In this document: positions 12,580 through 28,597 of the stretch, piece after piece
Numbering within the stretch: the first letter of the stretch is position 1
How the letters are laid out: each line of letters begins with the position of its first letter
From: Alphaproteobacteria bacterium
Lineage (GTDB): Bacteria > Pseudomonadota > Alphaproteobacteria > GCA-2731375
Reading direction: 5' to 3'
Length of the DNA stretch: 40,347 bases
NCBI GenBank assembly: GCA_016869175.1
Contig: VGEV01000015.1
Location: 1-40,347, forward strand
Position numbers and translations under genes: made by a program
The notes under the pieces: model-generated
The model's database searches: none
Seen by the model: the letters and a program-made list of their open reading frames with translations, nothing else
What the model was told of the DNA's origin: nothing

Positions 12580-13423
12580 CCGTGGCGCGGCGCATCACCT
12601 GATCCATCGCCAGCGCGGTTAGCACCGCCAGGCCGCCGAACAGTTCGAAGCCGCTTGGCCGCTCATCCAGGATGAGCCAAGCCCAAAGAACGGCGGGCAC
12701 CACCTCCAGCAGCACGATCAGGCCGCTTTGCGCGGCCGGCAGATGCCCGGCGGCGGCGGCGAACAGCAGGGTGCCACTGGCCAGCGCCACGCCCGAGAGC
12801 AAGCCGAACCACAGGCTGGGCGTGTTCGGCAGCCAGAGGGCAGGCGCCAGCAGCGCCGCCGGGACGCAGGCGGCCGCGCCGGCGATCAGCACGGCCGGCA
12901 ACAGGTCGATGGCGCGATGACGCCTGAGCAGCACGATGTAAAGCGCAAAGGCAGCCGCCACCACCAGCGCCAAGGCATCGCCCAGCAGCGTCGCCCGACC
13001 GGCCTTGCCCAGCACCATGATGCCGTTGCCGACAACCGCCAGAATGAGGCAGAGCCAACCGGAAGCGCGCACCCGTTCGCCCAGCCAGATCCATGCCAGG
13101 ATGCCGGCGATCAGCGGCGCCGTGTCGATCAGCACAATGGCATGCGCGATGGAGGTGTGCTGCAGCACGAACACGAACAGGACGAAGGTGCTGCCCATCA
13201 ACAGGCCGGCAACAATGCCGGGCCGGCCGATGCCAACCAGCTTGGCTCCGGCATGGCGGCCATAGAGCGCGAGCATGGCCAACGCGACCACGACTGTCAT
13301 TGCGGCCGAACGCAGGAACACGACGGTCCACGGATCGGCTTCGGCCAGTCGGATCAACGGTCCGCCAAAGCTCCAGCAGATCGGCGCGGCAAAGGTCAAC
13401 GTCAGCGCAAGGCGTGGTGACAC
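12563..13423 (-). CDS. EamA/DMT-family transporter
   Basis: A 286-residue inner-membrane protein with ten predicted hydrophobic helices in two EamA repeats (about 8-140 and 145-280), the standard DMT layout. Typical patches are FVLQHTSIAHAIVLIDTAPLI in the first half and LPAAQSGLIVLLEVVPAVLW in the second. Family members export metabolites such as amino acids, but the substrate is not readable here. It starts 37 bp after the stop of the decaheme-LVIVD cytochrome on the same strand, so it may be the last gene of that operon. Its 3' end overlaps the convergent kinase gene. Confidence 0.88.
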   Translation of the reverse strand: MSPRLALTLTFAAPICWSFGGPLIRLAEADPWTVVFLRSAAMTVVVALAMLALYGRHAGAKLVGIGRPGIVAGLLMGSTFVLFVFVLQHTSIAHAIVLIDTAPLIAGILAWIWLGERVRASGWLCLILAVVGNGIMVLGKAGRATLLGDALALVVAAAFALYIVLLRRHRAIDLLPAVLIAGAAACVPAALLAPALWLPNTPSLWFGLLSGVALASGTLLFAAAAGHLPAAQSGLIVLLEVVPAVLWAWLILDERPSGFELFGGLAVLTALAMDQVMRRATVKPEP

Positions 13424-13460
13424 CGTGTTGCCGCCAAGCGTGCCGATCGCCGTCCGCGCG

Positions 13461-16400
13461 CTATTCGCTGCGCCGGCGGAAGATCGACCGCGGGTCGGCG
13501 GGAGGGGCCGGCTGCGCCGGGGCTGTCGCCGGCGGCCGCGCAGGCGCCACCGTGGGTGCCCCGGGTTGCGCTGGTGCGGGAGTTGGCGTCGGTTGCACCG
13601 CCGGGGTCACGTCGGACCGCGGGGGCGCGTAAAGGGGCGCGGTGATCCAGGGGCCACCCGGCCGCCGGCGCGCGCCACTCGGTGCCGGCGGCAACGCGGC
13701 CAGGGCGGCCGTTTGCACCGCGGTCCGCGGCGGCTGGGGGGCCGGCACGAACTTCTCTGCCTCGACCCGGTCGCTCACCCGCCAGGGCTTGCCCTCCTTG
13801 TCGAGATAGAACCGCCGCTGCTCCGCCAGGTTGAACGGCCGCGAGCCCAGCCGCCCCAGGACGGCGATCTGTCCGCCGGTCTCGTCCACCGCGCGGTCGC
13901 GGTCCAGGCCCTTGGACAGCGACAGGGCCGGCCAGCTGGTCGGCCACCAGGCGACCAGTTCCGGCTTCGGATCGGGGCTGAAACCATAGAAATTCGGCTG
14001 GCTGTCTGGCGAGGTGAGCTGCACCACCTTGAGACCGTTCTTGCCGTCGGCGACATAGAGGAAGGCCGAAGCGTTGGTGCTGGCCACCTGCACGTCGAAG
14101 GCATCGTTGAGGCGCCCGTCGGCCGTGTACATCTGATGGACTGTCGGCCGTTCCGGATTCTCCACGTCGATGATGGCAACGCCTTCGCCGCGCGCCGCGA
14201 CGTAAGCGAAGGTGCGCGCGACATAGACGCGCTGCGCATCCTTCAGGCGCACCATCGCGTCCGCCACGGGCCTCGGTTTCTCCGGATTGGTCACGTCAAC
14301 CACCTTGAGGCCGTCGGCGTCGGTGACGAAGAGATAGCGGAATTGCACCGCGGTCGCCCGCGCGTCGCGGAACGGCAGCACCGCGGCCACCTTGGGCTTC
14401 AGCGGCTCGTTCATGTTGAGCACCACCACGCCCGCGTCGGCGACAATGTAGAAATAGTAGCCGGCGATGGTGATGTGCCGGGCGCCCTTCAACACGCCGC
14501 CGTCGTTCCAGGTGAGCTGGCGCGACAGGAAGTTGTTGCGCGGCTCGCCGTCCGACAGCGTGTTGACGTCGACGAGGATCAGGCCTTCCTCGGCATCGGT
14601 GATGAAGGCGTAGTCGTAGATCGGATGGAAGGGCTGCTCGAGGTTGACCTCGAACATCAGCTTCTTGGTGGCCTCGTCCTTCACCTGCCGGGCCGGGTGC
14701 ACCGGCTGGTTGGTGGCCAGTGCCATGCAGGTGGCGTTCTTGCTGGGCACGTGCGTGTCGTGCCCCAAGGAGCCGAACGGCGCGGTGATGATGCGGTCGG
14801 AAATGCCCTTGTTGGCGATCGAGGCGACGTCGTAGACCTGGAAACCGTTGGGCCCTTGCGAGACGTACAGATACTCGCCGCGCAACTGGATGCAGCCGGT
14901 GCGGTAGCCGGGCTGGGTATAGCTTTCGTCAAGCTTGCGGCCGCGTGCCTGGTGCTCGCGATACCAGTCGGGATAGGCGTATTTCTGCAGGTAGCTGCCG
15001 ATCACCGCCTGCGGCTCTTCCCACTCCGTCACGCGCACCGCCTCGAAGCCGCCATCGCCGCCGACCCAGGCGTTGAAGCCGACGAAGCCCACATAGTTGG
15101 TTCCGTGCAGCAGGAGTTGCGCCATGATCGCGTTGTTGTCGTTCCTGTCCGACAGATGGCAGTCGGTGCAGGTCTTGGTCTCGATCTTGCGCACCGTGTG
15201 GGGGAAGTGCGGCGCGAAGGCCTGGCTGGAATAGCCGCTGGCCGCCACCGGCGGCTGCTGGATGTAGATGCGCTCGCGGTTGATGTTGGTGGACGACAGC
15301 ACCAGCGCGGAGGACGAGCGGATCGGCGCCACCTTGTGGTTCTTGTAGACCGAGTGCTTGCCGAGCTGAAACATCTCGTCGCGCGCCACCTGCGGGTTGT
15401 AGGTGGCGTAGTTGCGCGTCTCGCCGCCCTCGTAATGGTGCCGGTCGGACTTCCAGTTGGCCTGGATCGGCAGATGACAGCCGCCGCAGCTGGTGGTCCA
15501 AGACAGATGGCAGGTGAAGCACAGCATCTCGTCGTCGTTATGCGCACGGGCGGCCTTGTCGCCCGCCACCCCCCAGCCCCATTGCATGCCGGTGCCCTTG
15601 ACCAGCAGTTTGGCGCGGGCGGACTTGGCGTTGTAGCCGGGATGCTCGGGGTTGACGCTGTCGCGCACCAGCGACATTTCCCATTCGCGTTGCGGACCCA
15701 GCGCCTTCTTGATCTTCTGGTCGGTCGACTCGGGCTGGTCGGTCCCCCACAGCATGGGCCGCTGGTAGAGCTTGCAGTCGCTGCGCGCGTTCAGCGCCTT
15801 GTCGCAGTCGCTGCCGCGCCATTCGAAGCGGGCGCGGCCGTCGGCATTGCGCAGGACCGAGAGATCGAAGCCGCCGGGCCGGGCCGCCGGGCCGCTGGTC
15901 CGCAAGGTCGGATAGCTGTCCACCGTACCGTGGCAATCCTCGCAGTCGATCTCCACGGCGTTGGCCACTTCGCCATAGATGTAGCCGTTGGAATGCGCGT
16001 CCTGCACGAAGTGGCAATCGACGCAGTGCATGCCGACGTCGACGTGGATCGACGACATGTGCACGGCCTTCTTCCACTTGTCGGGATCCTTGTGCTCGAC
16101 CTTGTTGCCGTCGGCATCCAGCAGGTTGCCCTTGCGGTCGCGCTTGTGGATCGAGCGGAAGTTCCAGCCGTGGCCGTGATAGTCGGCGAACTGCACGTGC
16201 TCCAGCTTGGGGTTGATCTCGGACACGCCGCGCATGAATTCGGGATCCGACCACAGGCCGCGGATCGCCGCTTCTTCCGGGTTGCGCTGGTTGATGGCGC
16301 GGATTTCCGCGGCGGACGGGTAGCGCTGCTCCTTGGGAAACATGTGCGGCGCTTCGGGCTCGTAGTCCCACATGGTGTAGCCCAGGAACGAGTTCACGAA

Positions 16401-17645
16401 CACGTTCGGCTGGTGCATGTGGCAGCTCATGCAGAGCGAGGTGGGGATGGCGCGCGAAAAGACATGGCGCAGCGGATGGCCTTCCTCGTTCTTCGGGATG
16501 GTGGGGTCCTTGGTCTGGGTCTTGCCGGTATGGCCGAAGCGGGCATAGGGGCCGGAATGGCGCTGGTCGCGGTCGTTGGCATAGACCACATGGCAGCCCG
16601 AACAGCCCGAGGAGCGGAAATCGCCCGGGTTGTCGTTGGTGCCCAGGAGCCACATGAACGGATCGTTGAGGCGGGTCTTGTGGATGTTCAGCACCGGCAC
16701 CGAGATCCTGAGGCCGGTGCCGGCGCCGCGGTTGGACTGCCGAATGTCGGGGCGGCCCGGCTCTTCCAGCCGCTGCAACTGCCCCAGCGAGTTGGGCAGG
16801 CCGATTTCCGGGAACTGCGTGACGATGTTGCGGCCGCCGCGCTCGAAAATGCGGAAGACGTCGCCAGGCGGAATCGTCTCGAAGGCGGGCAGCGGATAGA
16901 AGCGCGGCAGCACGCCGCGCTTGGCCAGCTTCTGCTTGAATTCCTGGGTGGCGTCGGGCGGAATCAGGCTGTCGAAGGCGGCGCCGACGCTGTGGCGCTC
17001 GCTGCCCTCGCCCACCACCTTGTAGCCTTCGCCCAGCAGATAGTGCTTGAACGGCAGGATGCCGTTGTTATAGGCGCCGCCGCCCCACAGCATGGCGCCA
17101 GTCGCCATCAGGCTGCGCTTGTTGTGCTCGATCTCCGGCATGTGGCAGGCGCCGCACGCCTCGTGCGCCACCCGATAATCCCCCGGATTGACGAAACGGA
17201 TGAATTCCGGCGCCTCGCGGTTCAGCAGCGTGTAGCTGCCTTCCGGATTGCGGCTGTGCGGATAATGCCAGCCGCCGGGAAAACGCGGCTGCACATGCGC
17301 CTTGTCCAGCGCGGCCATGTAGGCCGGTTCCTTGTGCTTGGTTCCGGCCGGCCGCATCACGCCGGCATCGCCGCCATGGCAATCGACGCAACCCAGCACG
17401 ATGGCCGGATTCTCGTGCATGTTGGCGCTGTCGGTCTCGGTATGGCAGGAGATGCAACCGATGCTTTTCTTGGCGGCGGCGTCGGCCGATTGCTGCGCCG
17501 GCGCCGGGGGTGTCACGGAATACACCACATGGCGCGGCGCTTCGCCGCCGGCCGCCAGGGCCGCGCCGCTCGCCCATGCGGCCGCCCACACGGCCGACAA
17601 TGTCGCGAAGATCGCCGTGCCCACCTTGCCTGACCGCACGCGCAT
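13461..17645 (-). CDS. Exported decaheme cytochrome c fused to an LVIVD-repeat propeller
   Basis: A 1394-residue exported protein. A Sec signal peptide (residues 1-32, cut near ALAAG) has no lipobox Cys. Ten CxxCH c-heme motifs follow: residues 64, 86, 164, 348, 405, 541, 568, 709, 720 and one near 830. From about residue 930 to 1240 the chain carries about six LVIVD-type repeats (for example YLFVTDADGLKVVDV and FAYVAARGEGVAIIDV), which form a beta-propeller. A Pro/Ala-rich tail ends it. The start is ATG 17645, behind AGGAGGGG. As the last cytochrome of the operon, after an outer-membrane barrel, it is the candidate terminal electron donor or acceptor outside the inner membrane. Whether it stays periplasmic or crosses the outer membrane cannot be seen. 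The propeller may bind a partner or substrate. Confidence 0.9.
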   Translation of the reverse strand: MRVRSGKVGTAIFATLSAVWAAAWASGAALAAGGEAPRHVVYSVTPPAPAQQSADAAAKKSIGCISCHTETDSANMHENPAIVLGCVDCHGGDAGVMRPAGTKHKEPAYMAALDKAHVQPRFPGGWHYPHSRNPEGSYTLLNREAPEFIRFVNPGDYRVAHEACGACHMPEIEHNKRSLMATGAMLWGGGAYNNGILPFKHYLLGEGYKVVGEGSERHSVGAAFDSLIPPDATQEFKQKLAKRGVLPRFYPLPAFETIPPGDVFRIFERGGRNIVTQFPEIGLPNSLGQLQRLEEPGRPDIRQSNRGAGTGLRISVPVLNIHKTRLNDPFMWLLGTNDNPGDFRSSGCSGCHVVYANDRDQRHSGPYARFGHTGKTQTKDPTIPKNEEGHPLRHVFSRAIPTSLCMSCHMHQPNVFVNSFLGYTMWDYEPEAPHMFPKEQRYPSAAEIRAINQRNPEEAAIRGLWSDPEFMRGVSEINPKLEHVQFADYHGHGWNFRSIHKRDRKGNLLDADGNKVEHKDPDKWKKAVHMSSIHVDVGMHCVDCHFVQDAHSNGYIYGEVANAVEIDCEDCHGTVDSYPTLRTSGPAARPGGFDLSVLRNADGRARFEWRGSDCDKALNARSDCKLYQRPMLWGTDQPESTDQKIKKALGPQREWEMSLVRDSVNPEHPGYNAKSARAKLLVKGTGMQWGWGVAGDKAARAHNDDEMLCFTCHLSWTTSCGGCHLPIQANWKSDRHHYEGGETRNYATYNPQVARDEMFQLGKHSVYKNHKVAPIRSSSALVLSSTNINRERIYIQQPPVAASGYSSQAFAPHFPHTVRKIETKTCTDCHLSDRNDNNAIMAQLLLHGTNYVGFVGFNAWVGGDGGFEAVRVTEWEEPQAVIGSYLQKYAYPDWYREHQARGRKLDESYTQPGYRTGCIQLRGEYLYVSQGPNGFQVYDVASIANKGISDRIITAPFGSLGHDTHVPSKNATCMALATNQPVHPARQVKDEATKKLMFEVNLEQPFHPIYDYAFITDAEEGLILVDVNTLSDGEPRNNFLSRQLTWNDGGVLKGARHITIAGYYFYIVADAGVVVLNMNEPLKPKVAAVLPFRDARATAVQFRYLFVTDADGLKVVDVTNPEKPRPVADAMVRLKDAQRVYVARTFAYVAARGEGVAIIDVENPERPTVHQMYTADGRLNDAFDVQVASTNASAFLYVADGKNGLKVVQLTSPDSQPNFYGFSPDPKPELVAWWPTSWPALSLSKGLDRDRAVDETGGQIAVLGRLGSRPFNLAEQRRFYLDKEGKPWRVSDRVEAEKFVPAPQPPRTAVQTAALAALPPAPSGARRRPGGPWITAPLYAPPRSDVTPAVQPTPTPAPAQPGAPTVAPARPPATAPAQPAPPADPRSIFRRRSE

Positions 17646-17672: not shown

Positions 17673-19499
17673 CTAGTACGTCAGGATGATGTTCGCCAGC
17701 ACGGAATAGAAGATGTCTTCCTCGGCGTTCGAGGCACGGTAGATGTCCTTGAAGCCTTCTTCCGGCAACAGCACCGCCCCCGACAGGCGGAACACGATGT
17801 TCTGGATGAACAGCGGCCGCCAGATCAACGCCGCCGACAGGTCCCAGCCGATCGCGGTGTCGATGTCGCCCTGGTTGCGCAGGAATTCGATTGACGACGA
17901 GTTAACGAAATCCAGGCGGTTGAAATTGGTGGACAGACGCAGTTCAGGCGTCAGGTCCAGATCGGTACCGATGCCGAACAGGGTGATGCCGGGGTTGTTG
18001 AAATTGGCCTGGCCGTGCTCCTTGGAGCTGCGCAACGACGGCAGCACGCCGTTGCGTTGCGACAGCACCACGCCGCCGCCGCCGATCAGCGGAATCCCCT
18101 GGCGGATCCAGAAACTGGTGTCGCCGCCGGCGAATTGCGGGTTCTCGAACGGCGCGTCGAAGCCTTCCTCGTCGTCGTCGAACGGGTCGTCGTCGCCGCT
18201 GGCATAGAGCGCCGACAGCCGCACGCGGATCCAGCTGAAGTCGATCGACGGTTCCAGCGCGGCGAAGAAGGCGCGAATGTTGGCGTCGCGCCGGCTGGTG
18301 AACTGGTTATGCTCGTCGTTGCCGAAGGCGTAGTAGAACGAGCCGGTCAGGTTGAACCGACCGAAATGACCGTCGCCGTTGAAGCCGATATAGGTGACAT
18401 CGTAGTTTCTCGGCCGCTCGTCGCCGATTGCCGCCGGCCGCTCCAGGAAGCCGTTCTCGTTGAAGAAGAAGGCGCGCTCGCCCTCGCGGTTGCGGTTATG
18501 CACCACGGTAAGCTGGCTGGTGAAGCCCAAGACCGGCGTGTCCTGCCGGTAGAGGTTGGCGATGAACAGGTCGTCGTCGCGGCTGGCGGCGGCGATGTCG
18601 TTCAAGCCCGAATTGGTGTCTTTTTCCAGACGACGGAAATAGGCCAAGTTGTACTGGTAGAGGTTGTTGGCCCGGGTGCCGAACAGGCGGGCGCCCAGTT
18701 GCAGATCCTGGAACAGGAAGCCGCGGAAATCGCTGGAGAATGGCTGAATACCGACGCGGATCGAATCGAAATCGTAGCGGTCGGAAACGTTGCGGATGTG
18801 GTAGTCGAAGAACAATTCCTGCATCGCCAGGAAGTTGTCATTGCGCTCGGCGCCGCCGTCCGGGTCGATCTTCAAGACCCGCAGCTCGTCCAGCTCGACG
18901 TAGTTGTAGTTGAAAACCGGGGTGATCCGGATTTCATAGTCGGGTGGCTTGTAGGCCGTGTTGCCCTTGATGAAAGCCAGACTGAAGATCACGTTCTGGT
19001 TGAAGATCAGCGTGTTGGTGTCGCCGAACAGGTCCAGCTTGTTGGCCGCCTTGGTGGTCTGCACGCCCACCGGCTTGGGGAAGGCGGACGGCTCAACCAC
19101 GGTGTCGGAGATGATGCCGATATTGACGAACCAGTCGTCGAACACCGGCCGGTCGCCCTTCAGCGTGCTTTGGCTGTAGGGGTCCCACCACTTCTCGTTG
19201 ACACCGATCGATTCGACGATACGCCAGCGATCGGGAATGGGGATGAAATCCTTCGGCAAGTTGGGCTGCCGGATATCGGGGCGTGGCGCCGCGGTCGGAT
19301 CGACCTTGATCGGCTCCTGCGGTGCCGGCGGCGGCACGCCCGGCCGGCGGCTGTCGTCCTGCGCGTAGCGATCGCCGCCCTGGCCGGTATAGCCCATGCG
19401 GATATTCGCGTTGGGGGCAAAGGATTCCTTGCCCGCCTGCGCGACCCCCGGACAGAGCGTGAGCGCCAGCAGCAGCGGCAGCGGACGGGGCAGGCTCAT
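17673..19499 (-). CDS. Outer-membrane beta-barrel (porin-like) protein
   Basis: A 608-residue protein with a clear signal peptide (MSLPRPLPLLLALTLCPGVAQA). The mature chain has many alternating-hydrophobicity strands and ends in NIILTY, an aromatic C-terminus typical of Bam-assembled outer-membrane barrels. Asp-rich loops (SGDDDPFDDDEEGFD near residue 440) fit surface loops. Its start overlaps the previous stop as ATGA, and the decaheme-LVIVD gene follows after 27 bp. By analogy with MtrB/PioB in porin-cytochrome conduits, it could seat a cytochrome across the outer membrane, but no sequence similarity to MtrB is claimed. There is no CxxCH motif. Confidence 0.8.
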   Translation of the reverse strand: MSLPRPLPLLLALTLCPGVAQAGKESFAPNANIRMGYTGQGGDRYAQDDSRRPGVPPPAPQEPIKVDPTAAPRPDIRQPNLPKDFIPIPDRWRIVESIGVNEKWWDPYSQSTLKGDRPVFDDWFVNIGIISDTVVEPSAFPKPVGVQTTKAANKLDLFGDTNTLIFNQNVIFSLAFIKGNTAYKPPDYEIRITPVFNYNYVELDELRVLKIDPDGGAERNDNFLAMQELFFDYHIRNVSDRYDFDSIRVGIQPFSSDFRGFLFQDLQLGARLFGTRANNLYQYNLAYFRRLEKDTNSGLNDIAAASRDDDLFIANLYRQDTPVLGFTSQLTVVHNRNREGERAFFFNENGFLERPAAIGDERPRNYDVTYIGFNGDGHFGRFNLTGSFYYAFGNDEHNQFTSRRDANIRAFFAALEPSIDFSWIRVRLSALYASGDDDPFDDDEEGFDAPFENPQFAGGDTSFWIRQGIPLIGGGGVVLSQRNGVLPSLRSSKEHGQANFNNPGITLFGIGTDLDLTPELRLSTNFNRLDFVNSSSIEFLRNQGDIDTAIGWDLSAALIWRPLFIQNIVFRLSGAVLLPEEGFKDIYRASNAEEDIFYSVLANIILTY

Positions 19500-21346
19500 T
19501 TGCCGGAACAAGGGGTTTGCGTGTCGTCGTTGACGAACGGCCGGAACGGGCAACTGACGTAGCGCAGGCGGATGCCCTGCGGCGCCAGGTTGTCGGCGCG
19601 CAAGGCCATCGGCGCGTTGGCGACGCCGCTGGCCAGCTGCAGGCCGGCATTGTGCGTTCCCAGGAAGGCGATCATGTCGTCCTGGTCGATGCCGTCGCCC
19701 GAAATGCCGATGGCGCCGGCCAGGACGCCGTTCTTGTACACCGGCACGCCGCCGGCGAAGATCTGCAACCCGTTCGCCAGCCGCGGCATGCCGGTTGCCA
19801 CCTGCAACGGCAGGCCGGTGCAGCCCACGGCCGTGTCCACGCCCGAGGCGCCGGTGACGAAGTTGAGATGCTGCACCACGTTGTTGGCGATCAGGTCGAG
19901 TTGCAGGCCGGTCGAGAACGGGCTCCAGGACGGAAACGGCCGCGACAAAGGTCCAGGCTGGTTGTTGGAATTGCCGTCGGGGAAGAACGGCCGCGCCAGG
20001 TTGCCGATCGAGCGTGCGGCATAGGCGAAGCCGTCGGCGAGAGCGTTGGGTCCCAGCAGCGCCCGGGTGCTGGCAACGTAGCTGGCAAAGCCGCCGGCGG
20101 TCAGGTCGGCCGCCGCCGCGACATTGCTGAAGAAGGCCGCCGAGCGCGCTTTCTGCAACGACACGTCGGTGCCGAAGACCGGGCCGTCGGGGGTGCGCAC
20201 CACCCCCAGCACGGTGCCGGCCGTGTCCACCACCGAGAGCGTGACGTGGATCTGGTCGTTGAGCGGCCGGCGGATCTGCGCGCGGCCGGCGTTGGCCACC
20301 TGCAGACCGGCGCGCAGGATCCCCGTCACCTCGGCCCGGGTCAGGCCGCCGTCGGTCGCATCGCGCGGCGCGAAGCGCTGCGTATTGGTGCCGTCGACCA
20401 GCACGAAACCGTTGAGGTCGGCGAACAGTCCGGAATTATCTAGCCGGTAGCCCGAGGCGGCTGTGCCAAACGCCTGGCCGTCGACAATGACCGCGCCGTT
20501 GGTATAGCCGGTCACCGCCTGAACCGTTCCCAGCACGCCGTTGATCGCGGCGAAGGCCGGCGCCGCGGCGGGCGCCGACACCAGCGATTCGATGTCGCGG
20601 TCGGCGAAGCGCAGCGTCTTGCCGTCGACCGCGATGCGGTTCGCGCGAATGCCCACCGGGGCGGCGAAGCCGACGCTGCCGGCGATCGCGATCAGTTCGT
20701 CGCTGTCGGTGTCGAAGTCGGTGATGTTGCGGTCAAGCCCATAGATCGCATCGGCGATCACGCCGATCCCACCCACCAGGATGTTGGCCTTGTAGAGCGG
20801 CATGCCGCCCGGGTCCGCGGACAAGCCCAGCGGCGAACGTTTCGGGCCGATATTCTGGTTGACCGAGGCGGCGACGAAGCGAACGTTCAGGTCGGAACAG
20901 GGCAATTGGCTGAACTGCACGCCGAATAGCGGCCCGCCCGGCTGGTTGGTTTCCAGCGGATTAAAGAACTCCTGCACGATCTGGTTGGCCGTGCGGCTGG
21001 TGAAGGCGTTGCCGTTCGACGACAGATAGGCCCCGGTGACCGCCTTGGCGATGGCGGCCGCCGACGCCGGGACGTTCGCCCCCTCGAGGCCGGTGGTGAC
21101 GCTGCGACCGGAGGTGACGGCGGCGGTCGCCGCGGCACCGTTCATGGCGAATACGCCCAGCACGTTGCCGACCCGGTCCACGACGGCGATGGTGGCAGGC
21201 CGGCCGCGCGCCTGCGCCTCGTTCACCGCCCGGGCGATGATCCGTTGCACCTCGGCGATGCTCAGCGACTGCTGCGCCAGGGTCGGCGCCGACAACCCCA
21301 GCAGCACCGGCAGCAACAATGCGCACCGCCACAGCCGGCCGATCAT
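19496..21346 (-). CDS. Exported protein with two HbpS/GlcG-like domains
   Basis: A 616-residue exported protein. The signal peptide is MIGRLWRCALLLPVLLGLSAPTLAQ without its last residues fixed. It carries two copies of the HbpS/GlcG-like fold, seen as ARGRPATIAVVDRVGNVLGV plus GGIGVIADAIYGLD in the first half and IHVTLSVVDTAGTVLGVVR plus GAIGISGDGIDQDDMIAFLG in the second. The family includes haem-binding and haem-degrading HbpS and the GlcG protein of glycolate operons. Fusion of two copies and a place inside a 20-haem cytochrome operon suggest haem handling or redox sensing, which is inference. It is coupled by 4-bp overlaps on both sides. Confidence 0.78.
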   Translation of the reverse strand: MIGRLWRCALLLPVLLGLSAPTLAQQSLSIAEVQRIIARAVNEAQARGRPATIAVVDRVGNVLGVFAMNGAAATAAVTSGRSVTTGLEGANVPASAAAIAKAVTGAYLSSNGNAFTSRTANQIVQEFFNPLETNQPGGPLFGVQFSQLPCSDLNVRFVAASVNQNIGPKRSPLGLSADPGGMPLYKANILVGGIGVIADAIYGLDRNITDFDTDSDELIAIAGSVGFAAPVGIRANRIAVDGKTLRFADRDIESLVSAPAAAPAFAAINGVLGTVQAVTGYTNGAVIVDGQAFGTAASGYRLDNSGLFADLNGFVLVDGTNTQRFAPRDATDGGLTRAEVTGILRAGLQVANAGRAQIRRPLNDQIHVTLSVVDTAGTVLGVVRTPDGPVFGTDVSLQKARSAAFFSNVAAAADLTAGGFASYVASTRALLGPNALADGFAYAARSIGNLARPFFPDGNSNNQPGPLSRPFPSWSPFSTGLQLDLIANNVVQHLNFVTGASGVDTAVGCTGLPLQVATGMPRLANGLQIFAGGVPVYKNGVLAGAIGISGDGIDQDDMIAFLGTHNAGLQLASGVANAPMALRADNLAPQGIRLRYVSCPFRPFVNDDTQTPCSGK

Positions 21347-21759
21347 TCCGGCACCACGTCGAACACGCCGAACTTGAGCTGGCCCCCGGCCCGATAGGCG
21401 ACGGTGACGGTGACCGGCAGGAAGCGCTGCGTCAAATCCTCCTTCAGCACCTTGAAGGTCAGCAGGCCGCCGGTCGGCTGGAAACCGTTGTCGATCAGGC
21501 TGGCGGGCGTGCCATCCCAAGGCAACCAGTAGCCCTGGTTGGTGCGCTGCAGGCTGCGCCCGTCCGGCATCGAAGCCATGACATGGCTGGCGGTCGGCAC
21601 ATCGCCGCCCAATTCGACCGTCTTGCCGACATTGGCGGCGGCGATCGGCACCTTGACGGGCGCCAACCGCGCGCCCTTGCTGTTGAGGGTTTCGGCCTGT
21701 GCCCCCAACGCAACCAGCAGCCCAAGGCCCGCCAAGCCTGTGGTGCGCGCCAGATTCAT
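21343..21759 (-). CDS. Small exported beta-rich protein of unknown function
   Basis: A 138-residue protein with a signal peptide (MNLARTTGLAGLGLLVALGAQA). The mature part looks beta-rich (VKVPIAAANVGKTVELGG and FLPVTVTVAYRAGGQLKFG) and has no Cys, so it binds no c-type haem. A family is not recognised. It lies 56 bp after the FHA-decaheme cytochrome and overlaps the next start as ATGA, so it is clearly part of the operon. A periplasmic accessory or assembly factor is the plain guess. Confidence 0.75.
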   Translation of the reverse strand: MNLARTTGLAGLGLLVALGAQAETLNSKGARLAPVKVPIAAANVGKTVELGGDVPTASHVMASMPDGRSLQRTNQGYWLPWDGTPASLIDNGFQPTGGLLTFKVLKEDLTQRFLPVTVTVAYRAGGQLKFGVFDVVPE

Positions 21760-21815: not shown

Positions 21816-23687
21816 CTACTTCACAATCGCGGCCGCTTGCGGCTTGCCTTGCATCGGCGCCATGCGGTCGATGTGGAATTCGTGGCACATGACGCAGGTC
21901 GACGGCACCAGGTTCGCCGCCCGTTCGCCGCCGTGACATTGCTGGCAAGTCTCGATCTTCGGCAGCAGCACGTCGGCGCTGCACAGCGAGGGCAGCGGAT
22001 TGTCGGCCAGCAGTTCCTTCTGCACCGCCACCCGCTCGCAGGCAGCGCTGGCCACCCAGACCTGGCCCGCGCCCAGCGGCGCGCCTTCGGCCGCGACCTC
22101 GTTGGCTTGCCCCTGGTGGCACCCCGAACAGGCCACCGTGTCGTGGCTCTTGTGGTCGAACTTGCCGAGCGGCAGCCAGCGGTTGACCACTTTCGGCCGT
22201 TGCACGTCCCACTCGCCGCTGGCGGCGATCGTGGTGTTGTGGCAATAGCCGCACAGCGCCTCGCCGGCATAGCGCACGAAGGCCTTGCGCTGCTCCTCGG
22301 CCCAGGCCGCCGCTTCCGCCAGCTCTTCGCGGCTCTCCGGCCGGCCGGGTCGGCGCGGCTGCAGCATGCGCGGCTCCGCCTCGCGCGCCTGCGGGTCGCG
22401 GTAGGCGGCGTTCTCAAGCGCGACGCGATAGTAATAGTCGCGGCCGATGTCCTGCACCTCCTTGGGCTTGGCATGCGGCAACGAGCGCTCGGGCGTCAGC
22501 TTGATCGGGTGGCATTCCTGGCAATGCGTTTCCATGTCGATCGGCAGGAAACCGGCGCCGCCCGGCTCCTGCTGATGACAGTCCTTGCAGTCGAGCAGCC
22601 GCCGCCCGCTCGGCGAGTTGACGCCTTGGCGCGGCTTGCCGTCGCGGTCGGCCACGGTCATGCGGGTCAGGTGCACGGCATGGGGGAAGCGCAGGCCCGA
22701 GACCTCGCGCAAGCGCGGCTTGCCGTCGGCCCCCTTGCCGGCGTCGGCCAGGCTCACGCGCTCGATCCTGCCGCCGTCGGGCGCGCGGAAATCGGTCATC
22801 ACCGAGGGTCGGAACTGCGGGTGATTGGTCAGGAAATCGCTGGCGTCCTGCAGTTTGGTATCCGCCAGGCGACCCTTCAATTCGCTATGGCAGCCGGCGC
22901 AGAAGCGCTGATCCGACAGGACAATGGCCTGTCGTCCGTTATGCTCCTTGTGGCAGCTTTGGCAGGCGGGCGTGGCGCCGGCGGCGGCCTGTTCGAAGCG
23001 CTTGGCCTCGGCATGGTGCCGCGTTGCCACATGACAGGCGACGCAGGCTCGATCCGCCACTTGCTCAAACGGCTTCTGGTGGCAGGTTTCGCACCGATCG
23101 CCGAAGAAGTTGTGCGCGCCCGAGATCGTGCCGCTGAGCCAGGTCTGGTCGAACCGGGCCATGGCGCCCGCCGGCGGCTCGCTCAGCTTCTGGCCCGCCT
23201 TGCCAAAGTATCCGGCAATCGGCAGCGCCAGGAACAGCGCCACCACCGCCAGAAACAGGCCCCAGGCGGTGCGCCGCTTGCTGAGCCAAGTCTCGGCCAG
23301 GCTGGTGTGGCTGCGCGACCTCAATTGCTCCAGATCGTCGCCCAGCGGCCGCGCCAGTTCGACGGTCAGCGCGAACTGCTTGCCGACCGGCGCTTCCACC
23401 ACTTCCAGATCGTACGGCCCGACCGCCAGCTTGTCGCCGAGCTTGAGCTTGGCCGCCCGCGTCGGCGCGCCGTTCGCCCTGAGGTCGAACGGCGGCACGC
23501 TCTGCATGAACATGCCGCCCGGCTGCTCGACGATCTCGGCCGCGTGCAGCGGGATGCGCGGGTCGGCCAGATAGATCTCGCATTCGGCGCCACGGCCGAT
23601 GCGGATGGTCGCGGCCGAGATGTCGATGTCGCGCCGCGCGACGCCGCCGCGGGCCCGGCGTGTGAGTGTGCTGACGACGCAATCCAC
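21816..23687 (-). CDS. FHA-domain, membrane-anchored decaheme cytochrome c
   Basis: A 623-residue protein joining three parts. Residues 22-112 form an FHA domain (IRIGRGAECEIYLADP, then PLHAAEI), the phosphothreonine-reading fold. The Gly-Arg is kept, but the usual Ser of SxxH is Ile. One membrane helix (141-161) follows a basic KRR, which puts FHA in the cytoplasm and the rest in the periplasm. The remainder holds ten CxxCH motifs: CETCH 199, CVACH 215, then CQSCH, CAGCH, CKDCH, CQECH, CGYCH, CSGCH, CQQCH and CVMCH. It starts at GTG 23687, 14 bp after the cytochrome b stop. It is placed to carry electrons from the membrane b-hemes across the periplasm. The FHA part suggests control by protein phosphorylation or docking of the cytoplasmic reductase. 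Confidence 0.88.
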   Translation of the reverse strand: MDCVVSTLTRRARGGVARRDIDISAATIRIGRGAECEIYLADPRIPLHAAEIVEQPGGMFMQSVPPFDLRANGAPTRAAKLKLGDKLAVGPYDLEVVEAPVGKQFALTVELARPLGDDLEQLRSRSHTSLAETWLSKRRTAWGLFLAVVALFLALPIAGYFGKAGQKLSEPPAGAMARFDQTWLSGTISGAHNFFGDRCETCHQKPFEQVADRACVACHVATRHHAEAKRFEQAAAGATPACQSCHKEHNGRQAIVLSDQRFCAGCHSELKGRLADTKLQDASDFLTNHPQFRPSVMTDFRAPDGGRIERVSLADAGKGADGKPRLREVSGLRFPHAVHLTRMTVADRDGKPRQGVNSPSGRRLLDCKDCHQQEPGGAGFLPIDMETHCQECHPIKLTPERSLPHAKPKEVQDIGRDYYYRVALENAAYRDPQAREAEPRMLQPRRPGRPESREELAEAAAWAEEQRKAFVRYAGEALCGYCHNTTIAASGEWDVQRPKVVNRWLPLGKFDHKSHDTVACSGCHQGQANEVAAEGAPLGAGQVWVASAACERVAVQKELLADNPLPSLCSADVLLPKIETCQQCHGGERAANLVPSTCVMCHEFHIDRMAPMQGKPQAAAIVK

Positions 23688-23701: not shown

Positions 23702-24532
23702 TTACCAGTAGAAGAAAACGGATATCACATGCGCCACCAGCGCGGCGATCAGCGCGAAGGTGAGCGGCACATGCACGTAGAGCCAAATGTCCAGCATCGC
23801 CTTGATCTGCACGTCGCGCCGGGCGCGACCAAGCAGCTCGTCCTTGCGGGTCAGCAGCGCGATCAGGCGACGCACATGCTCGGCGCCCTCGCTGCCGATG
23901 CTGTCGCCCAGCTCGCGCACCCTCTTCAACGCCCGGGCGGTCGCGCAATCGGGCGCCCGCCCGCTCAGTTGCCGAAGGACGCCGCCGCCGACCCTGGTGT
24001 TCTGGCTGGCCTCCAGCACGGTCCGATTGATCTCGTCGCCCAGCGTCATCACCTGTTCGCGGCACTCCACGTCCAGCTCGGCGATCTGCGCCAGTATGTC
24101 GGTCAGCGTCAGGCCGCGCCGGTTCTCGGTCATCAGCGCGGGATAGCGCAGATAGACGAAGACGCCGAAAACCCCGCTGGCGATCACCAGCATCATCAGC
24201 ACATAGGCCAGCGTGTGCACATTCCAGCCGAACTGGAAGCCAGAATGCAGCGTGGCGATCACGATCAGCGACAGCCCCAGGTAGACATGCGCCGACAGCC
24301 AGCCCTCCAGCCGCCACTTGCCGGGGCCGTAGCTGCGCTTGCGCATGCCGAACCACATCAGCCACAGGATCAGCGCGGCGCCGATGGAGCCCAGGCCGTA
24401 GCCGAGCCAGGTGCCGCCGTTGGGCATGCCAAGCGGCCGGTCGACGGCGTAAGCGACGATCGCCGCCAGCATCAGCAGCGTCGCCACCTTCAAATACAGA
24501 AAGCCGCGATAGACCAGTACGGACTCGTTCAT
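23702..24532 (-). CDS. Di-heme cytochrome b-type membrane protein
   Basis: A 276-residue inner-membrane protein with about five membrane helices: four in residues 8-130 and one at 253-274. His residues in helices, about H82, H96, H106, H254 and H268 (AHVYLGL, TLHSGF, VHTLAY, YVHVPL, AHVISVF), can ligate two b-type hemes as in cytochrome b561-like quinone or iron-sulfur-linked subunits. A soluble helical insert of about 110 residues lies between the fourth and fifth helices. A GTG at 24535 directly before the ATG could also start it. It sits between the iron-sulfur oxidoreductase and the decaheme cytochrome genes, so it is the expected membrane step between them, with or without quinone. Confidence 0.82.
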   Translation of the reverse strand: MNESVLVYRGFLYLKVATLLMLAAIVAYAVDRPLGMPNGGTWLGYGLGSIGAALILWLMWFGMRKRSYGPGKWRLEGWLSAHVYLGLSLIVIATLHSGFQFGWNVHTLAYVLMMLVIASGVFGVFVYLRYPALMTENRRGLTLTDILAQIAELDVECREQVMTLGDEINRTVLEASQNTRVGGGVLRQLSGRAPDCATARALKRVRELGDSIGSEGAEHVRRLIALLTRKDELLGRARRDVQIKAMLDIWLYVHVPLTFALIAALVAHVISVFFYW

Positions 24533-24549
24533 CACCCCGTCCCCGCCGA

Positions 24550-24587: not shown

Positions 24588-26975
24588 CTAGCGCTGGCCG
24601 AGCGTCGCCAGACTCAAGAACCGTTCCGGATTGACGCGGATCGCCGCCCCGGTCGGACAACCCCTGACGCAGGCCGGCCCGCCCTCGATGCCCGAACACA
24701 TATCGCACTTCACCGCCTTCTTCTGACCGTGCGGATGCGCCGACTTGTCCTGCCCGGGACCCGGCCCGGCGCCGAACAGCAGCCAGTTGAGGATGCTGGG
24801 CTTGCCGGGCGGCCGCACCGCCAGCTGAATGACGCCATAGGGGCAATTGCGCTGGCAATTGCCGCAGCCGATGCAGCTGTCGTCGATGAACACCTCGCCG
24901 TTCGGTCGGCGGTGGATCGCGTCCGGCGGGCAATCGGTCATGCAGTGCGGGTGCTCGCAATGCCGGCACGACGTCGGCACGTGCACGTTGGCGAAGGTCG
25001 GTCCGGCCTCGCGGTTCAACCGCGAGATGCCATCGTGCGATTCGGCGCAGGCCTTCTCGCAGTTGTCGCAGCGCACGCACAGCGCCTCGTCGATCAGCAG
25101 GATGTCCGTCGCCTCCGAGGCGCCCTGGTCGACCAGGAACTGGATGATCGAGCCCACTTCCGGCGCATTCGCCATGCGCTCGTTCTGCTGGATGCGGTCC
25201 CCGAACTTCTGTTCCACCTCCTTGCGCAAGGCTTCCGAGCGGGACATCAGCCGCTTGAAGGCCTGGCCTTCGATGCGGATCGTCTCGGTGTGGTTGATCG
25301 CCGCCCTGACCGTGGCCGAACGCGGCGCGTCCGACAGCAGCGCCATCTCGCCCACGTAATTGCCGGCGGCAACATAGGACAGCACGATGTCGCGGCCGCC
25401 GATACGCCGCGAGACGGTGACTGAGCCGCGCCGGATCAGGTGCACGCTGTCGCCGATCTCGCCCTCGTTGAACAGCGTCTCGCCTTCCATGAAATGCTGC
25501 GCCTGGGCCGAGGCCAGCACGTCGGCCAGGTCGTCCTTGGCCAGCCTGGGCGCGAGATAGGTCTGGATCTGCCGGGCGATCGCCGTCTGATCCATCACCC
25601 GGCGCACTTCCTCGACCGAGTTGATCAGCTTGATCATCGACCGGCGGTTGGTCTCCAGCAGCACGCAATCGCTGTGTGCCTTGATGGTGGCGGTGCGCCG
25701 GCGGCCGGAGATCAGGCCCATCTCACCGAAGAACTCACCCTTGCCCAGCAGCACGACCTCCGTGGGGTCGTTGGGATTGACCTCGATCGCCACCTGACCG
25801 TCGACGATGGTGTAGAAGGTGTTGGAATAGTCGTTGCGGGTGAAGATCGCTTCGCCCGGTTTCGGCGTCCGCACTTCCGAATCCAGCATCAGCTCGCGCA
25901 GCAACAGCGTGTTCAGCTCCCGGAACAGCGGCACATTGTCGCGCACGCGCTTCAGGAACGCATCAACCGACACGCCGGGCAGGATCTTGATCTTTTCTTC
26001 GAGCAGCGGTTCGTCGGCCGGCTTCAGCTCGCGGTTGCCGCGGATGAACTCGATGACCTCATAGCCCTGGTTCATCGCCTGCTTGATCAGCGGATAGCCG
26101 CCCAGCGCGCCGATGATGTACAGGCCCTCGACATTGCTCTCGTAGTGCCGGCTGACTTCCGGCAGCGAGGCGGGATTGTCGTTCGGGAACTTGACGCCGC
26201 AACTCTCCACGAACTGGCGCGGCGGAATGGCGCCCAGCCGGGCGATGATGCGGTCGCACTTGATTTCGGCCTCGCCTTCCGGCGTGCGCAAGGTGATGGT
26301 GCCGGGCGTCACCTTCACCGGGGCGGTGTTGAAATAGCCCTGGATCACGCCTTTCTCGATCGCCGCGGTGACGGCATCGAGATTGCCCTGCTTGGCGCGG
26401 GCGAACTCGTCTCGCCGGTTGACGATCAGCACGGTATTCTGTTTCGACAGCGCCACCGCGTTCTCGATCGCCGCGTCGCCGGCACCGATCACCACCACGG
26501 TCTCGCCTTCGTATTCGTCGGGATCGTCGAGCTGATACTGCACGTGCGGCGCGTCGGCGGCTCCCGGGCAATCCAGCTTGCGCAGGTTGCCCTGAAGGCC
26601 GATCGACAGGATGACGTTCTCGGCCGTCAGCTTGCTGCCGTCGGTCAGGCTGATCTCGAAGGCGCCCTTCTTGCCCTTGACCCGCGTGACCTCCGCCTTG
26701 TAGCGGACGTTCACCTTGTGCTTCGCAAGGTCCTCGTCCCAGGCGCCCAGCACCTCCTCGCGCGCGCCCGCCTGGAAGCGGAACGGACTGCGCAGCGGCA
26801 AGATATCCGGCGTGGCCATGACATACTTGCCCTTCTGGTACTTGAAGATGGTGTCCGAGGCGTGCGGCATCTTTTCCAGCAGCACATGCGACAGGCCCGC
26901 CTCGGCCGCGTGCCCGGCGGCGCTCAGTCCGGCCGGCCCGGAACCGATAATGGCGACAGCAACGTTGTCAGCCAC
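24588..26975 (-). CDS. FAD/NAD(P) oxidoreductase fused to two cyclic-nucleotide-binding domains and a four-cluster ferredoxin
   Basis: A 795-residue cytoplasmic fusion. Residues 5-315 form a TrxR-like FAD/NAD(P) reductase: FAD motif IGSGPAGLSAAG (10-21), NAD(P) motif VVIGAGDAAIENA (161-173), and no CxxC, so it is not a thioredoxin reductase. Residues 365-450 and 488-575 are two cyclic-nucleotide-binding folds with phosphate cassettes FGEMGLISGRRRTAT and VGEMALLSDAPRSATV. Residues 632-775 hold four Cys groups (CVRCDNCEKAC, CRHCEHPHCMTDC, CIGCGNCQRNC, CDMC...CVRGC) as in DmsB/HybA-type four-cluster proteins. GTG 26975 is chosen because GGAGG lies 7-8 nt upstream; upstream codons are Arg-rich non-coding. 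As first gene of the operon it should move electrons from NAD(P)H to the b-heme protein, perhaps gated by cAMP or a related nucleotide. Confidence 0.9.
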   Translation of the reverse strand: MADNVAVAIIGSGPAGLSAAGHAAEAGLSHVLLEKMPHASDTIFKYQKGKYVMATPDILPLRSPFRFQAGAREEVLGAWDEDLAKHKVNVRYKAEVTRVKGKKGAFEISLTDGSKLTAENVILSIGLQGNLRKLDCPGAADAPHVQYQLDDPDEYEGETVVVIGAGDAAIENAVALSKQNTVLIVNRRDEFARAKQGNLDAVTAAIEKGVIQGYFNTAPVKVTPGTITLRTPEGEAEIKCDRIIARLGAIPPRQFVESCGVKFPNDNPASLPEVSRHYESNVEGLYIIGALGGYPLIKQAMNQGYEVIEFIRGNRELKPADEPLLEEKIKILPGVSVDAFLKRVRDNVPLFRELNTLLLRELMLDSEVRTPKPGEAIFTRNDYSNTFYTIVDGQVAIEVNPNDPTEVVLLGKGEFFGEMGLISGRRRTATIKAHSDCVLLETNRRSMIKLINSVEEVRRVMDQTAIARQIQTYLAPRLAKDDLADVLASAQAQHFMEGETLFNEGEIGDSVHLIRRGSVTVSRRIGGRDIVLSYVAAGNYVGEMALLSDAPRSATVRAAINHTETIRIEGQAFKRLMSRSEALRKEVEQKFGDRIQQNERMANAPEVGSIIQFLVDQGASEATDILLIDEALCVRCDNCEKACAESHDGISRLNREAGPTFANVHVPTSCRHCEHPHCMTDCPPDAIHRRPNGEVFIDDSCIGCGNCQRNCPYGVIQLAVRPPGKPSILNWLLFGAGPGPGQDKSAHPHGQKKAVKCDMCSGIEGGPACVRGCPTGAAIRVNPERFLSLATLGQR

Positions 26976-27032
26976 GCTTGCCCCTCCGCCCCTGTAGTCC
27001 GGCCGCCGCTGCCGGAACCCTCTGTGGTTGTT

Positions 27033-27047
27033 GCGTAAAAGCCGCCA
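27033..27047 (-). promoter_or_regulatory. Candidate sigma54 promoter for the cytochrome operon
   Basis: On the minus strand TGGCGGC-TTTT-ACGCA has GG and GC separated by exactly 10 bp, the sigma54 rule, and shares TGGC and GCA with the consensus TGGCACG-N4-TTGCA. It ends about 58 bp upstream of the GTG start of the oxidoreductase. A sigma54-dependent activator is encoded divergently next to it. The match is partial. Confidence 0.4.
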
Positions 27048-27063
27048 GCGGCAAATCGGACTG

Positions 27064-27092
27064 AGGCTAGGTACTCGACTGAGTCGTGTCAA
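27064..27092 (-). promoter_or_regulatory. Candidate sigma70-type promoter overlapping a palindrome
   Basis: On the minus strand a consensus -35 TTGACA (27087-27092) is spaced 17 bp from TAGCCT (27064-27069), a weak -10. The spacer contains the palindrome CGACTGAGTCG (27076-27086), which could be an operator for a repressor or an enhancer site for the NtrC-type regulator. It competes with the sigma54 reading. Confidence 0.4.
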
Positions 27093-27175
27093 TCACAGCG
27101 GCGCAAGATTAGCAGAACGTAAAAAGCCGTCGATTAGTCTCGCGCTTCGTGCAGCCCTCCTTTGGAGAATCGCAC

Positions 27176-28597
27176 TTGGCCGATCACGCCTCGGCGGCGC
27201 CACCGACCCTGTTGCTGGTGGAAGACAGCCCGACGATGGCACGGCTCTATCGCCGATTCGTCCGGCACGAGCCATACGCCGTCGTGCACGCCGCCAGCGC
27301 CGCCGAAGCCGCGGCCGCGCTCGGCCGCCTGACGCCGGCGGTGGCGCTGATCGACCTGCGCCTGCCGGACGCCGACGGCCTCGGCCTCCTGCGGCAGATT
27401 CGCGCGGACGGCCTGCCCACGGTGGCGGTGGCGATGACCGCGCATGGCAGCATCGAACTGGCGGTCGAGGCCATGCGAATCGGGGCCTTTGACTTCCTGG
27501 TCAAGCCCTTCGCCCGCGACCGCCTGCTCGTCACCTTGCGCAATGCCTTCGATCGGTTTCGCCTGACCGGGCTGGTGGAACGCTATCGCGCTGAGTTCGG
27601 CCGCGACCGGCTGTGCGGCTTGCTGGGCGGCTCGGACGCGATGCAGGCCGTCTATCACACCATCCTGGCGGCGGCGCGCAGCCGTGCCGCCGTGTTCATC
27701 AGCGGCGCCAGCGGCACCGGCAAGGAGCTGGCGGCGCGCGCGGTGCACGAGCTCAGCGAACGACGCGGCCGGCCGTTCGTGGCGGTCAATTGCGCTGCCC
27801 TGCCGGCCAGCCTGGCGGAAAGCGAACTGTTCGGTCATCGCAAGGGCGCCTTCACCGGGGCCGACGCGGCGCGGGCCGGCGCGGCGGCCTCGGCCGACGG
27901 CGGCACCCTGTTCCTCGACGAAATCAGCGAGATGGAGATCGCGACCCAGGCCAAGCTGCTGCGCTTCCTGCAAGGCGGCCGTTTCACCCCGCTCGGCGCC
28001 GACCGTGAACAGGTCGTCGACGTGCGCGTCCTGGCGGCCAGCAACCGGCGCCCGGAACAGGCCATGGCGGAGGGATGCCTCCGCGAGGACTTGTTCTACC
28101 GCCTCAACGTGATCCCGCTGGAGCTGCCGAGCCTGAAGGAGCGAGAGGCCGACGCGCTGCAGATCGCCCAGGCATTGCTGGCGCGCGTCGCCCGGGCGGA
28201 GGGCAAGCGCTTCGGCGCCATGGCGCCCGATGCCGAAGCCTGCCTGCTGGCCTACGACTGGCCGGGCAACGTGCGCGAACTGGAAAACAGCATCCATCGC
28301 GCGGTGGTGCTGAACGATGGCGAGCTGTTGACCGCCGCCATGCTGCCGCCGGCGCTGCGTGCCGCCACCCTGCCGCCGGCGCCGGGCGTCGCCGTTCCGC
28401 CGGTGCCGGCCTCGCCCCCCGGTATCCGTCCGCTCATCGAGGTCGAGCGCGCCGCCATCGAAGCCGCGTTGGCCGCCTGTCGGGGCAACGTCGCGCGGGC
28501 CGCGACGCTGCTCGGCATCAATCCCTCGACGCTCTACCGCAAGCGGCAAGCCTGGGAGGCGGGTGCCGCCCCGCCGGCCGCCAGCGCCGCGCGATAG
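27176..28597 (+). CDS. NtrC-family sigma54-dependent response regulator
   Basis: A 473-residue activator with three domains. The receiver spans residues 10-125, with acidic E16/D17, phosphoacceptor Asp60 (ALIDLRLPD), Thr88 and Lys110 (FLVKPF). The AAA+ domain spans about 145-380, with Walker A GASGTGKE (177-184), the sigma54-contacting loop GAFTGAD (224-230) and Walker B TLFLDEI. A C-terminal Fis-type helix-turn-helix (GNVARAATLLGINPSTLYRKR) ends it. TTG 27176 is favoured as start because GGAGA lies 7 nt upstream; a GTG at 27149 lacks such a site. It is transcribed away from the cytochrome operon, so it is the likely activator of that operon. No cognate histidine kinase is in the window, and the nearby Hpt gene is broken. 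Confidence 0.9.
   Translation: MADHASAAPPTLLLVEDSPTMARLYRRFVRHEPYAVVHAASAAEAAAALGRLTPAVALIDLRLPDADGLGLLRQIRADGLPTVAVAMTAHGSIELAVEAMRIGAFDFLVKPFARDRLLVTLRNAFDRFRLTGLVERYRAEFGRDRLCGLLGGSDAMQAVYHTILAAARSRAAVFISGASGTGKELAARAVHELSERRGRPFVAVNCAALPASLAESELFGHRKGAFTGADAARAGAAASADGGTLFLDEISEMEIATQAKLLRFLQGGRFTPLGADREQVVDVRVLAASNRRPEQAMAEGCLREDLFYRLNVIPLELPSLKEREADALQIAQALLARVARAEGKRFGAMAPDAEACLLAYDWPGNVRELENSIHRAVVLNDGELLTAAMLPPALRAATLPPAPGVAVPPVPASPPGIRPLIEVERAAIEAALAACRGNVARAATLLGINPSTLYRKRQAWEAGAAPPAASAAR

What the first reader, a model, noticed from the sequence alone, without database searches (positions are those of the whole stretch)
24588..26975. One polypeptide with reductase, two cyclic-nucleotide domains and a four-cluster ferredoxin
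Residues 5-315 are a TrxR-like FAD/NAD(P) reductase without the CxxC. Two cNMP folds with intact phosphate cassettes come next, then four Cys groups for [4Fe-4S]. The sensor domains sit exactly between the flavin and FeS modules, so a bound nucleotide could gate electron flow directly.
Basis: partly seen in the sequence, partly recalled or inferred. Interest (0 to 1): 0.82.

Follow-up and report, generated by a model that had tools for sequence, protein, structure and literature searches.

The report
Cyclic-nucleotide-sensing electron input for cytochrome conduit
A bacterial enzyme that probably takes electrons from NAD(P)H and feeds them, through a membrane cytochrome, to a chain of multiheme cytochromes leading out of the cell carries two built-in sensors of the cAMP/cGMP type, kept unchanged in every one of about 100 related bacteria examined, so a second messenger may switch this electron export on or off.

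Summary
It is no curiosity. The same full-length protein occurs in hundreds of Alpha-, Gamma- and Betaproteobacteria (>=528 stretches encode relatives). Both CNB phosphate cassettes keep their Glu and Arg in 102/102 proteins. The gene heads a tight 7-gene operon: 5-TM diheme-b-type membrane protein, FHA-like decaheme cytochrome, small secreted protein, HbpS-like protein, barrel-like protein, decaheme LVIVD cytochrome. All 25 genomes of its class with the gene also have the membrane protein (26/289 genomes), even when unlinked. The membrane protein has the exact signature of the 'PCC4' conduit proposed in 2017 for iron oxidisers, so the window is PCC4's inner half joined to another outer half. 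Best reading: NAD(P)H -> FAD -> [4Fe-4S] -> b hemes -> multiheme cytochromes -> outside, regulated by a cyclic nucleotide. That the sensors gate flavin-to-FeS transfer directly is not shown: relatives without a flavin domain keep CNB-CNB-FeS beside the membrane protein, so gating may act at the FeS/membrane step. Ligand, gating and direction are untested.

The parts
24588..26975 (-). Gene 1: YpdA/TrxR-like flavoprotein + 2 cyclic-nucleotide-binding domains + four-cluster ferredoxin, 795 aa, GTG start
26031..26963 (-). FAD/NAD(P) reductase domain (aa 5-315), no CxxC, no YpdA catalytic Cys
   Evidence: best fold match Bdr/YpdA 7a7b, TM 0.87 by target length
25566..25940 (-). CNB domain A (aa 346-470); phosphate cassette at 25683-25733 (FFGEMGLISGRRRTATI)
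   Evidence: E418, R425, R427 invariant in 102
25176..25565 (-). CNB domain B (aa 471-600); phosphate cassette at 25308-25358 (YVGEMALLSDAPRSATV)
   Evidence: E543, R552 invariant in 102
24630..25100 (-). Four-cluster [4Fe-4S] ferredoxin domain (aa 626-782), HycB/HydN/AegA-like
   Evidence: 16 conserved Cys
23702..24535 (-). Gene 2: 5-TM inner-membrane protein with two WX3HX13H motifs (H83/H97, H255/H269) and SGXXG; predicted diheme cytochrome b with a helical hairpin (aa ~140-245)
21816..23687 (-). Gene 3: FHA-like N-terminal domain, one TM, decaheme c-type cytochrome (10 CXXCH)
21343..21759 (-). Small 138-aa protein with a signal-peptide-like start, in the operon, function unknown
19496..21346 (-). 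Gene 4: protein with HbpS-like domains (616 aa from ATG 21346), signal-peptide-like start
17673..19499 (-). Gene 5: barrel-like protein (608 aa), weak match to an outer-membrane porin family; predicted outer-membrane channel
   Evidence: (NF033939, 18.6 bits, far below cut-off)
13461..17645 (-). Gene 6: decaheme c-type cytochrome with C-terminal LVIVD repeats, signal-peptide-like start; predicted outer cytochrome
27149..28597 (+). Divergent NtrC-type sigma-54 response regulator; clear homologue next to gene 1 in only one relative (L072), so a doubtful part of the system

Best explanation
Gene 1 is the cytoplasmic electron-input protein of a trans-envelope multiheme conduit. NAD(P)H reduces the FAD of the YpdA-like domain, which (having no thiol) passes electrons to the four [4Fe-4S] clusters; these reduce the two b hemes of the 5-TM protein (gene 2), which pass electrons across the inner membrane to the FHA-like decaheme cytochrome (gene 3), a tetraheme c554-like cytochrome encoded elsewhere, and an outer-membrane unit (genes 4-6) to a periplasmic or extracellular acceptor. 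The two CNB domains bind a cyclic nucleotide (cAMP or cGMP) and change the arrangement of the ferredoxin relative to the flavin and/or the membrane protein, so that NAD(P)H is spent on the conduit only under the right signal. Shown: the domains, the conserved motifs, the operon and the co-occurrence. Inferred: cofactors, electron path and outward direction. Inferred, weaker: ligand binding and gating.
For: Architecture conserved full length in hundreds of loci, with PBC Glu/Arg 102/102 and the 16 FeS Cys conserved. Order gene 1-2-3-4-5-6 is kept in most loci long enough to show it, and the same genes lie together on a Sphingobium plasmid. Co-occurrence over the same 289 genomes of the class: gene 1 in 25, gene 2 in 26, all 25 shared (Fisher 3.5e-35; genomes are related, so this overstates the significance), also where unlinked (G120, G178). 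Gene 6 is in 19, all within the 25. Gene 2: two WX3HX13H and SGXXG in 62 of 66; pLDDT 92; fits E. coli superoxide oxidase CybB (Z 8.6, rmsd 3.1, 130 residues) and cytochrome b561 (Z 7.7, rmsd 3.3) (Z in a range common for helical proteins); 28 of 49 relatives hit Pfam b561 PF01292. The reductase folds like YpdA and TrxR-like ferredoxin-NADP reductases, which lack CxxC and reduce ferredoxin (general knowledge). Modularity: CNB-CNB-FeS without reductase, and FeS-reductase without CNB, both beside homologues of gene 2 and a multiheme cytochrome, which fits sensors as a regulatory add-on. Nucleotide cyclases are present. Outward direction follows from NAD(P)H potential and membrane-potential sign (general knowledge).
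Against: No binding, spectroscopic or activity data. Intact PBCs do not prove cyclic nucleotide binding. CNB-A has Arg at the usual Pro (GRRR), so its ligand could differ. Thiotrichales loci L060 and L075 have gene 1 without the cytochromes nearby. Residues for the NADPH 2'-phosphate are only partly kept (R187 98/102, R188 48/102), so the donor is uncertain. He et al. 2017 drew PCC4 as running inward from an extracellular donor to quinone. The FeS region is modelled poorly. The barrel and extracellular location are not established.
Confidence: 0.5

Rival explanations
1. Same conduit, but run inward: the multiheme chain collects electrons from Fe(II), Mn(II) or another outside donor and delivers them to quinone or, through FeS and FAD, to NAD(P)+; cyclic nucleotide regulates uptake.
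For: He et al. 2017 (PMC5566968) proposed PCC4 in iron oxidisers with flow from an extracellular donor to the quinone pool.
Against: Reducing NAD(P)+ from such donors is uphill and against the membrane potential; many carriers are ordinary aerobic heterotrophs (Tahibacter, Dokdonella, Solimonas, Sphingobium) not known to me as metal oxidisers.
Confidence: 0.2
2. The CNB domains are structural spacers or dimerisation modules that no longer bind or respond to a nucleotide; gene 1 is a constitutive NAD(P)H:FeS reductase.
For: CNB folds can serve without a ligand (general knowledge); in the reductase-less relatives the second CNB has lost its cassette.
Against: Glu and Arg of both cassettes invariant in 102/102 and cassette identity far above the rest of the domains; a spacer need not keep the ligand site.
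Confidence: 0.2
3. Gene 1 is mainly a sensor of redox state and cyclic nucleotide that controls partners, rather than an electron carrier.
For: Sensor domains in gene 1, an FHA-like domain in gene 3, and a divergent NtrC-type regulator next door in the window.
Against: No output domain; near-perfect co-occurrence with a predicted heme-binding membrane protein; FeS domain of the HycB/HydN electron-transfer type; the regulator is not conserved.
Confidence: 0.1

Closest known systems
PCC4 putative porin-cytochrome conduit (He et al. 2017, PMC5566968)
   Same: 5-TM inner-membrane protein with SGXXG on TM4 and two WX3HX13H on TM3/TM5; a decaheme cytochrome; a PF13247-type FeS protein; tetraheme homologue in the same genome (contig C10). 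Seven related loci (L047, L052, L068, L084, L092, L099, L101) carry tetraheme, pentaheme and barrel genes with gene 1.
   Different: No match to the PCC4-like pentaheme or barrel in this genome (single-query searches without a positive control); instead HbpS-like, another barrel-like protein and a decaheme-LVIVD cytochrome. Cyclic nucleotide sensing is not mentioned in that paper's main text.
YpdA/Bdr bacillithiol disulfide reductase
   Same: Closest fold (7a7b, TM 0.87 by target) and closest sequence family for the N-terminal domain; no CxxC.
   Different: 138.9 bits against a cut-off of 339.9; the catalytic Cys is not conserved; fused to CNB and FeS domains.
TrxR-like ferredoxin-NADP+ reductase (YumC type)
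   Same: TrxR fold, NAD(P)H to FeS acceptor, next-best fold group (6gar, 2zbw, 3lzw, 3ab1).
   Different: Stand-alone enzymes using separate ferredoxin; no sensor domain.
cNMP-TrxR fusion ATII-TrxR (PMC6544261)
   Same: CNB domain fused to a TrxR-type flavoenzyme.
   Different: One CNB domain, N-terminal, described as a thioredoxin reductase; no FeS module reported in the passages read.
HycB/HydN/AegA-type four-cluster ferredoxins
   Same: C-terminal FeS domain (HycB3 7qv7 E 7e-19; HydN 64 bits; AegA 76 bits).
   Different: Below NCBI cut-offs; other partners.

Membership tests
PCC4 (He et al. 2017) | IMP with 5 TM, SGXXG on TM4 and WX3HX13H on TM3 and TM5 | tested here: met
   62 of 66 homologues by pattern; helices of the model
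PCC4 (He et al. 2017) | Periplasmic decaheme and tetraheme cytochromes | tested here: met
   Gene 3 has 10 CXXCH; tetraheme relative on contig C10, 41% identity to the Sphingobium copy, 500 bits to the L047 copy; periplasmic location itself not tested
PCC4 (He et al. 2017) | Pentaheme cytochrome and PCC4 porin | tested here: inconclusive
   No match in the own genome but no positive control; present beside gene 1 in seven other loci
PCC4 (He et al. 2017) | PF13247-containing redox protein near the IMP | tested here: met
   Fer4_11 PF13247, 40.2 bits, cut-off 26.2
PCC4 (He et al. 2017) | No extracellular multiheme cytochrome | tested here: inconclusive
   Gene 6 is an extra decaheme with a signal-like start; its location is unknown
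YpdA/Bdr | Score above TIGR04018 cut-off | tested here: not met
   138.9 of 339.9 bits
YpdA/Bdr | Catalytic Cys in the GxGPCG FAD motif | tested here: not met
   Ala15 here; Cys in 6 of 101
Thioredoxin reductase | Redox-active CxxC | tested here: not met
   No CxxC in aa 5-315; Cys of this domain not invariant
Cyclic-nucleotide-binding domain PF00027 | Profile score above cut-off, two copies | tested here: met
   129.5 bits, two stretches
Cyclic-nucleotide-binding domain PF00027 | Phosphate cassette Glu and Arg | tested here: met
   102/102 in both
Cyclic-nucleotide-binding domain PF00027 | Binds cAMP or cGMP | not testable with these tools
   needs a binding assay
Diheme b cytochrome (b561/CybB-like) | Heme-ligand His on TM helices and fold | tested here: inconclusive
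   Four conserved His; PF01292 in 28/49 relatives but not in the window protein; 5oc0 Z 8.6, 4o6y Z 7.7
FHA domain (gene 3) | GR...SxxH...NG phosphopeptide site | tested here: inconclusive
   G31 R32 in 62/62; canonical Ser lost; PF16697 21.3 bits under cut-off 33.2

The most novel reading that the evidence does not exclude
A cyclic nucleotide directly and allosterically gates electron flow from NAD(P)H into a widespread trans-envelope multiheme conduit: second-messenger control of extracellular electron export at protein level, in hundreds of proteobacteria, many of them aerobic heterotrophs not known to be electroactive.
Probability: 0.35. Interest if true: 0.85.

Novelty: new variant of a known kind. 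Interest (0 to 1): 0.6.

Why it matters
How bacteria decide when to spend NAD(P)H on a multiheme conduit is known, as far as I can tell, mainly at the level of gene expression. Here the electron-input protein itself carries two cyclic nucleotide sites under strict selection. If they gate it, second-messenger signalling controls an electron-transfer conduit directly, in one polypeptide that can be expressed and assayed. It also gives the PCC4 class a plausible NAD(P)H-side partner and extends it to many heterotrophs.

Tried and rejected
One-off fusion or assembly artefact: rejected, because full-length relatives are numerous. Thioredoxin reductase or bacillithiol reductase function: rejected, because CxxC and the YpdA Cys are absent. 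Phage origin: no phage match; 12 Sphingobium megaplasmids carry it. Sigma-54 site between gene 1 and the NtrC-type gene: no TGGC-N7-TGC match at 26975-27149. Foldseek of gene 2 against PDB gave no match at E<=0.001; only the VIA second look showed b561-type proteins. A class-wide search with full-length gene 6 failed and was repeated with its first 880 residues. Literature searches found no paper on this protein or on cyclic-nucleotide gating of a conduit; PCC4 was found by reading PMC5566968. Its supplementary domain figure could not be read, so it may already show this domain architecture. Magnetospirillum MGMSRv2_1306 was considered as a homologue and left as unproven.

Full report
OBSERVATION. 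The gene lies on the minus strand, 24588-26975. It encodes 795 aa: a Pyr_redox flavoprotein (aa 5-315), two cNMP_binding domains and a ferredoxin domain with four Cys groups. The nearest reductase is YpdA/Bdr (TIGR04018 138.9 bits, cut-off 339.9; PDB 7a7b by sequence and by fold), followed in fold by TrxR-like ferredoxin-NADP reductases. CxxC and the YpdA Cys are absent.

FAMILY. Twelve Sphingobium megaplasmids carry it. In 102 proteins, Glu418, Arg425, Arg427, Glu543 and Arg552 never vary and the 16 ferredoxin Cys are essentially invariant. Identity to the window protein is 0.86 and 0.78 in the two cassettes, against 0.56 and 0.51 for the whole CNB domains. The distance between the two cassettes is almost fixed (117 residues in 90 of 102).

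NEIGHBOURS. Seven genes run on the minus strand from 26975 to 13461 with gaps of about -4 to 56 bp (coordinates): gene 1; gene 2, 277 aa with five TM helices; gene 3, FHA-like + TM + 10 CXXCH; a 138-aa secreted-looking protein; gene 4, HbpS-like; gene 5, barrel-like; gene 6, 10 CXXCH + LVIVD. The order 1-2-3-4-5-6 recurs in most loci and, split into two opposed blocks, in Sphingobium. In the 289 class genomes gene 1 is in 25, gene 2 in 26, shared 25 (Fisher 3.5e-35; the genomes are related, so the number overstates the case), also in G120 and G178, where the two lie on different contigs. Gene 6 is in 19, all with gene 1. So genes 1 and 2 form the core and the outer unit is exchangeable.

KNOWN KIN. 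Gene 2 carries W79xxxH83x13H97, S120GxxG124 and W251xxxH255x13H269; 62 of 66 homologues match all three patterns. This is the signature He et al. 2017 gave for the inner-membrane protein of the putative conduits PCC3 and PCC4, argued there to bind two b hemes (PMC5566968). PCC4 also has cytochromes with 4, 5 and 10 hemes, a porin and a PF13247 FeS protein. Seven of the loci here carry tetraheme, pentaheme and barrel genes beside gene 1. The window's genome has the tetraheme on contig C10 but no detectable pentaheme or PCC4-like barrel. The window is thus PCC4's inner half with another outer half. The model of gene 2 is confident (pLDDT 92) and, among solved membrane proteins, fits CybB superoxide oxidase and cytochrome b561 with rmsd near 3 A, though Z there is in a range common for helical proteins. 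PMC10734462 lists a 'Forkhead-associated protein' with 10 hemes in 27 iron-oxidiser genomes, probably gene 3's kind (inference).

MODULARITY. A weaker search found two relatives of the plan. L134 and L135: tri-/tetraheme gene, then CNB-CNB-FeS WITHOUT reductase, then a gene 2 homologue, then a decaheme gene; L136 has the same CNB-CNB-FeS protein. Their first cassette is intact (FGEIGALGRFPRSVS, FGEISALSRSPRTAT, FGEIGALGRFPRSTS), their second lost. L137: FeS + YpdA-like reductase WITHOUT CNB, beside a gene 2 homologue and a 24-heme cytochrome, as in PCC3. Hence FeS plus membrane protein is the constant part; flavin and sensor are each optional. This supports the sensor as a regulatory add-on but argues against the specific claim that it must gate flavin-to-FeS transfer.

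MECHANISM. NAD(P)H -> FAD -> [4Fe-4S] x4 -> b hemes -> decaheme/tetraheme -> outer unit. Outward flow is preferred because the reverse, to NAD(P)+, is uphill and against the membrane potential (general knowledge). The genome has 18 matches to class III nucleotide cyclases, so ligand supply is plausible. Ligand identity is open; Ser/Thr after the cassette Arg in most proteins does not decide cAMP against cGMP. The GRRR in CNB-A is unusual.

VERDICT. The reading as a sensor-bearing electron-input protein is supported by conservation and context; direct gating is a good, testable hypothesis, not a result. It is a new variant of a known candidate conduit.

Noticed in passing
L137:3557-4858 (-), L138:3914-6250 (-), L139:3672-5030 (-): YpdA-like reductases fused to FeS domains look circularly permuted relative to gene 1: the segment that ends gene 1's reductase (ETNVPGIFIAGE in L137 and L139) lies before the FAD Rossmann motif.
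   Followed up: partly
L134:3193-5043 (+), L135:3222-5000 (+), L136:3941-6130 (+): Reductase-less CNB-CNB-four-cluster ferredoxin proteins; in L134 and L135 they sit beside a gene 2 homologue and a decaheme cytochrome; only the first cassette is intact.
   Followed up: partly
window 21816-23687: FHA-like domain fused through a TM helix to a decaheme cytochrome; Gly-Arg conserved 62/62 but the phosphopeptide Ser lost: a second signalling-type domain in the same conduit.
   Followed up: partly
L079:4281-6734 and 12677-15190: Two copies of gene 1, in opposite orientation, within one betaproteobacterial locus, each next to a tetraheme gene.
   Followed up: no
L060:9968-12406, L075:4408-6882: Thiotrichales loci with gene 1 and no cytochrome genes nearby.
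   Followed up: no
window 10466-12579: Two adjacent APH-family phosphotransferase genes downstream of two luciferase-like monooxygenase genes (3615-4811, 8128-9270).
   Followed up: no
window 21343-21759: 138-aa secreted-looking protein inside the operon with no family assigned here.
   Followed up: no
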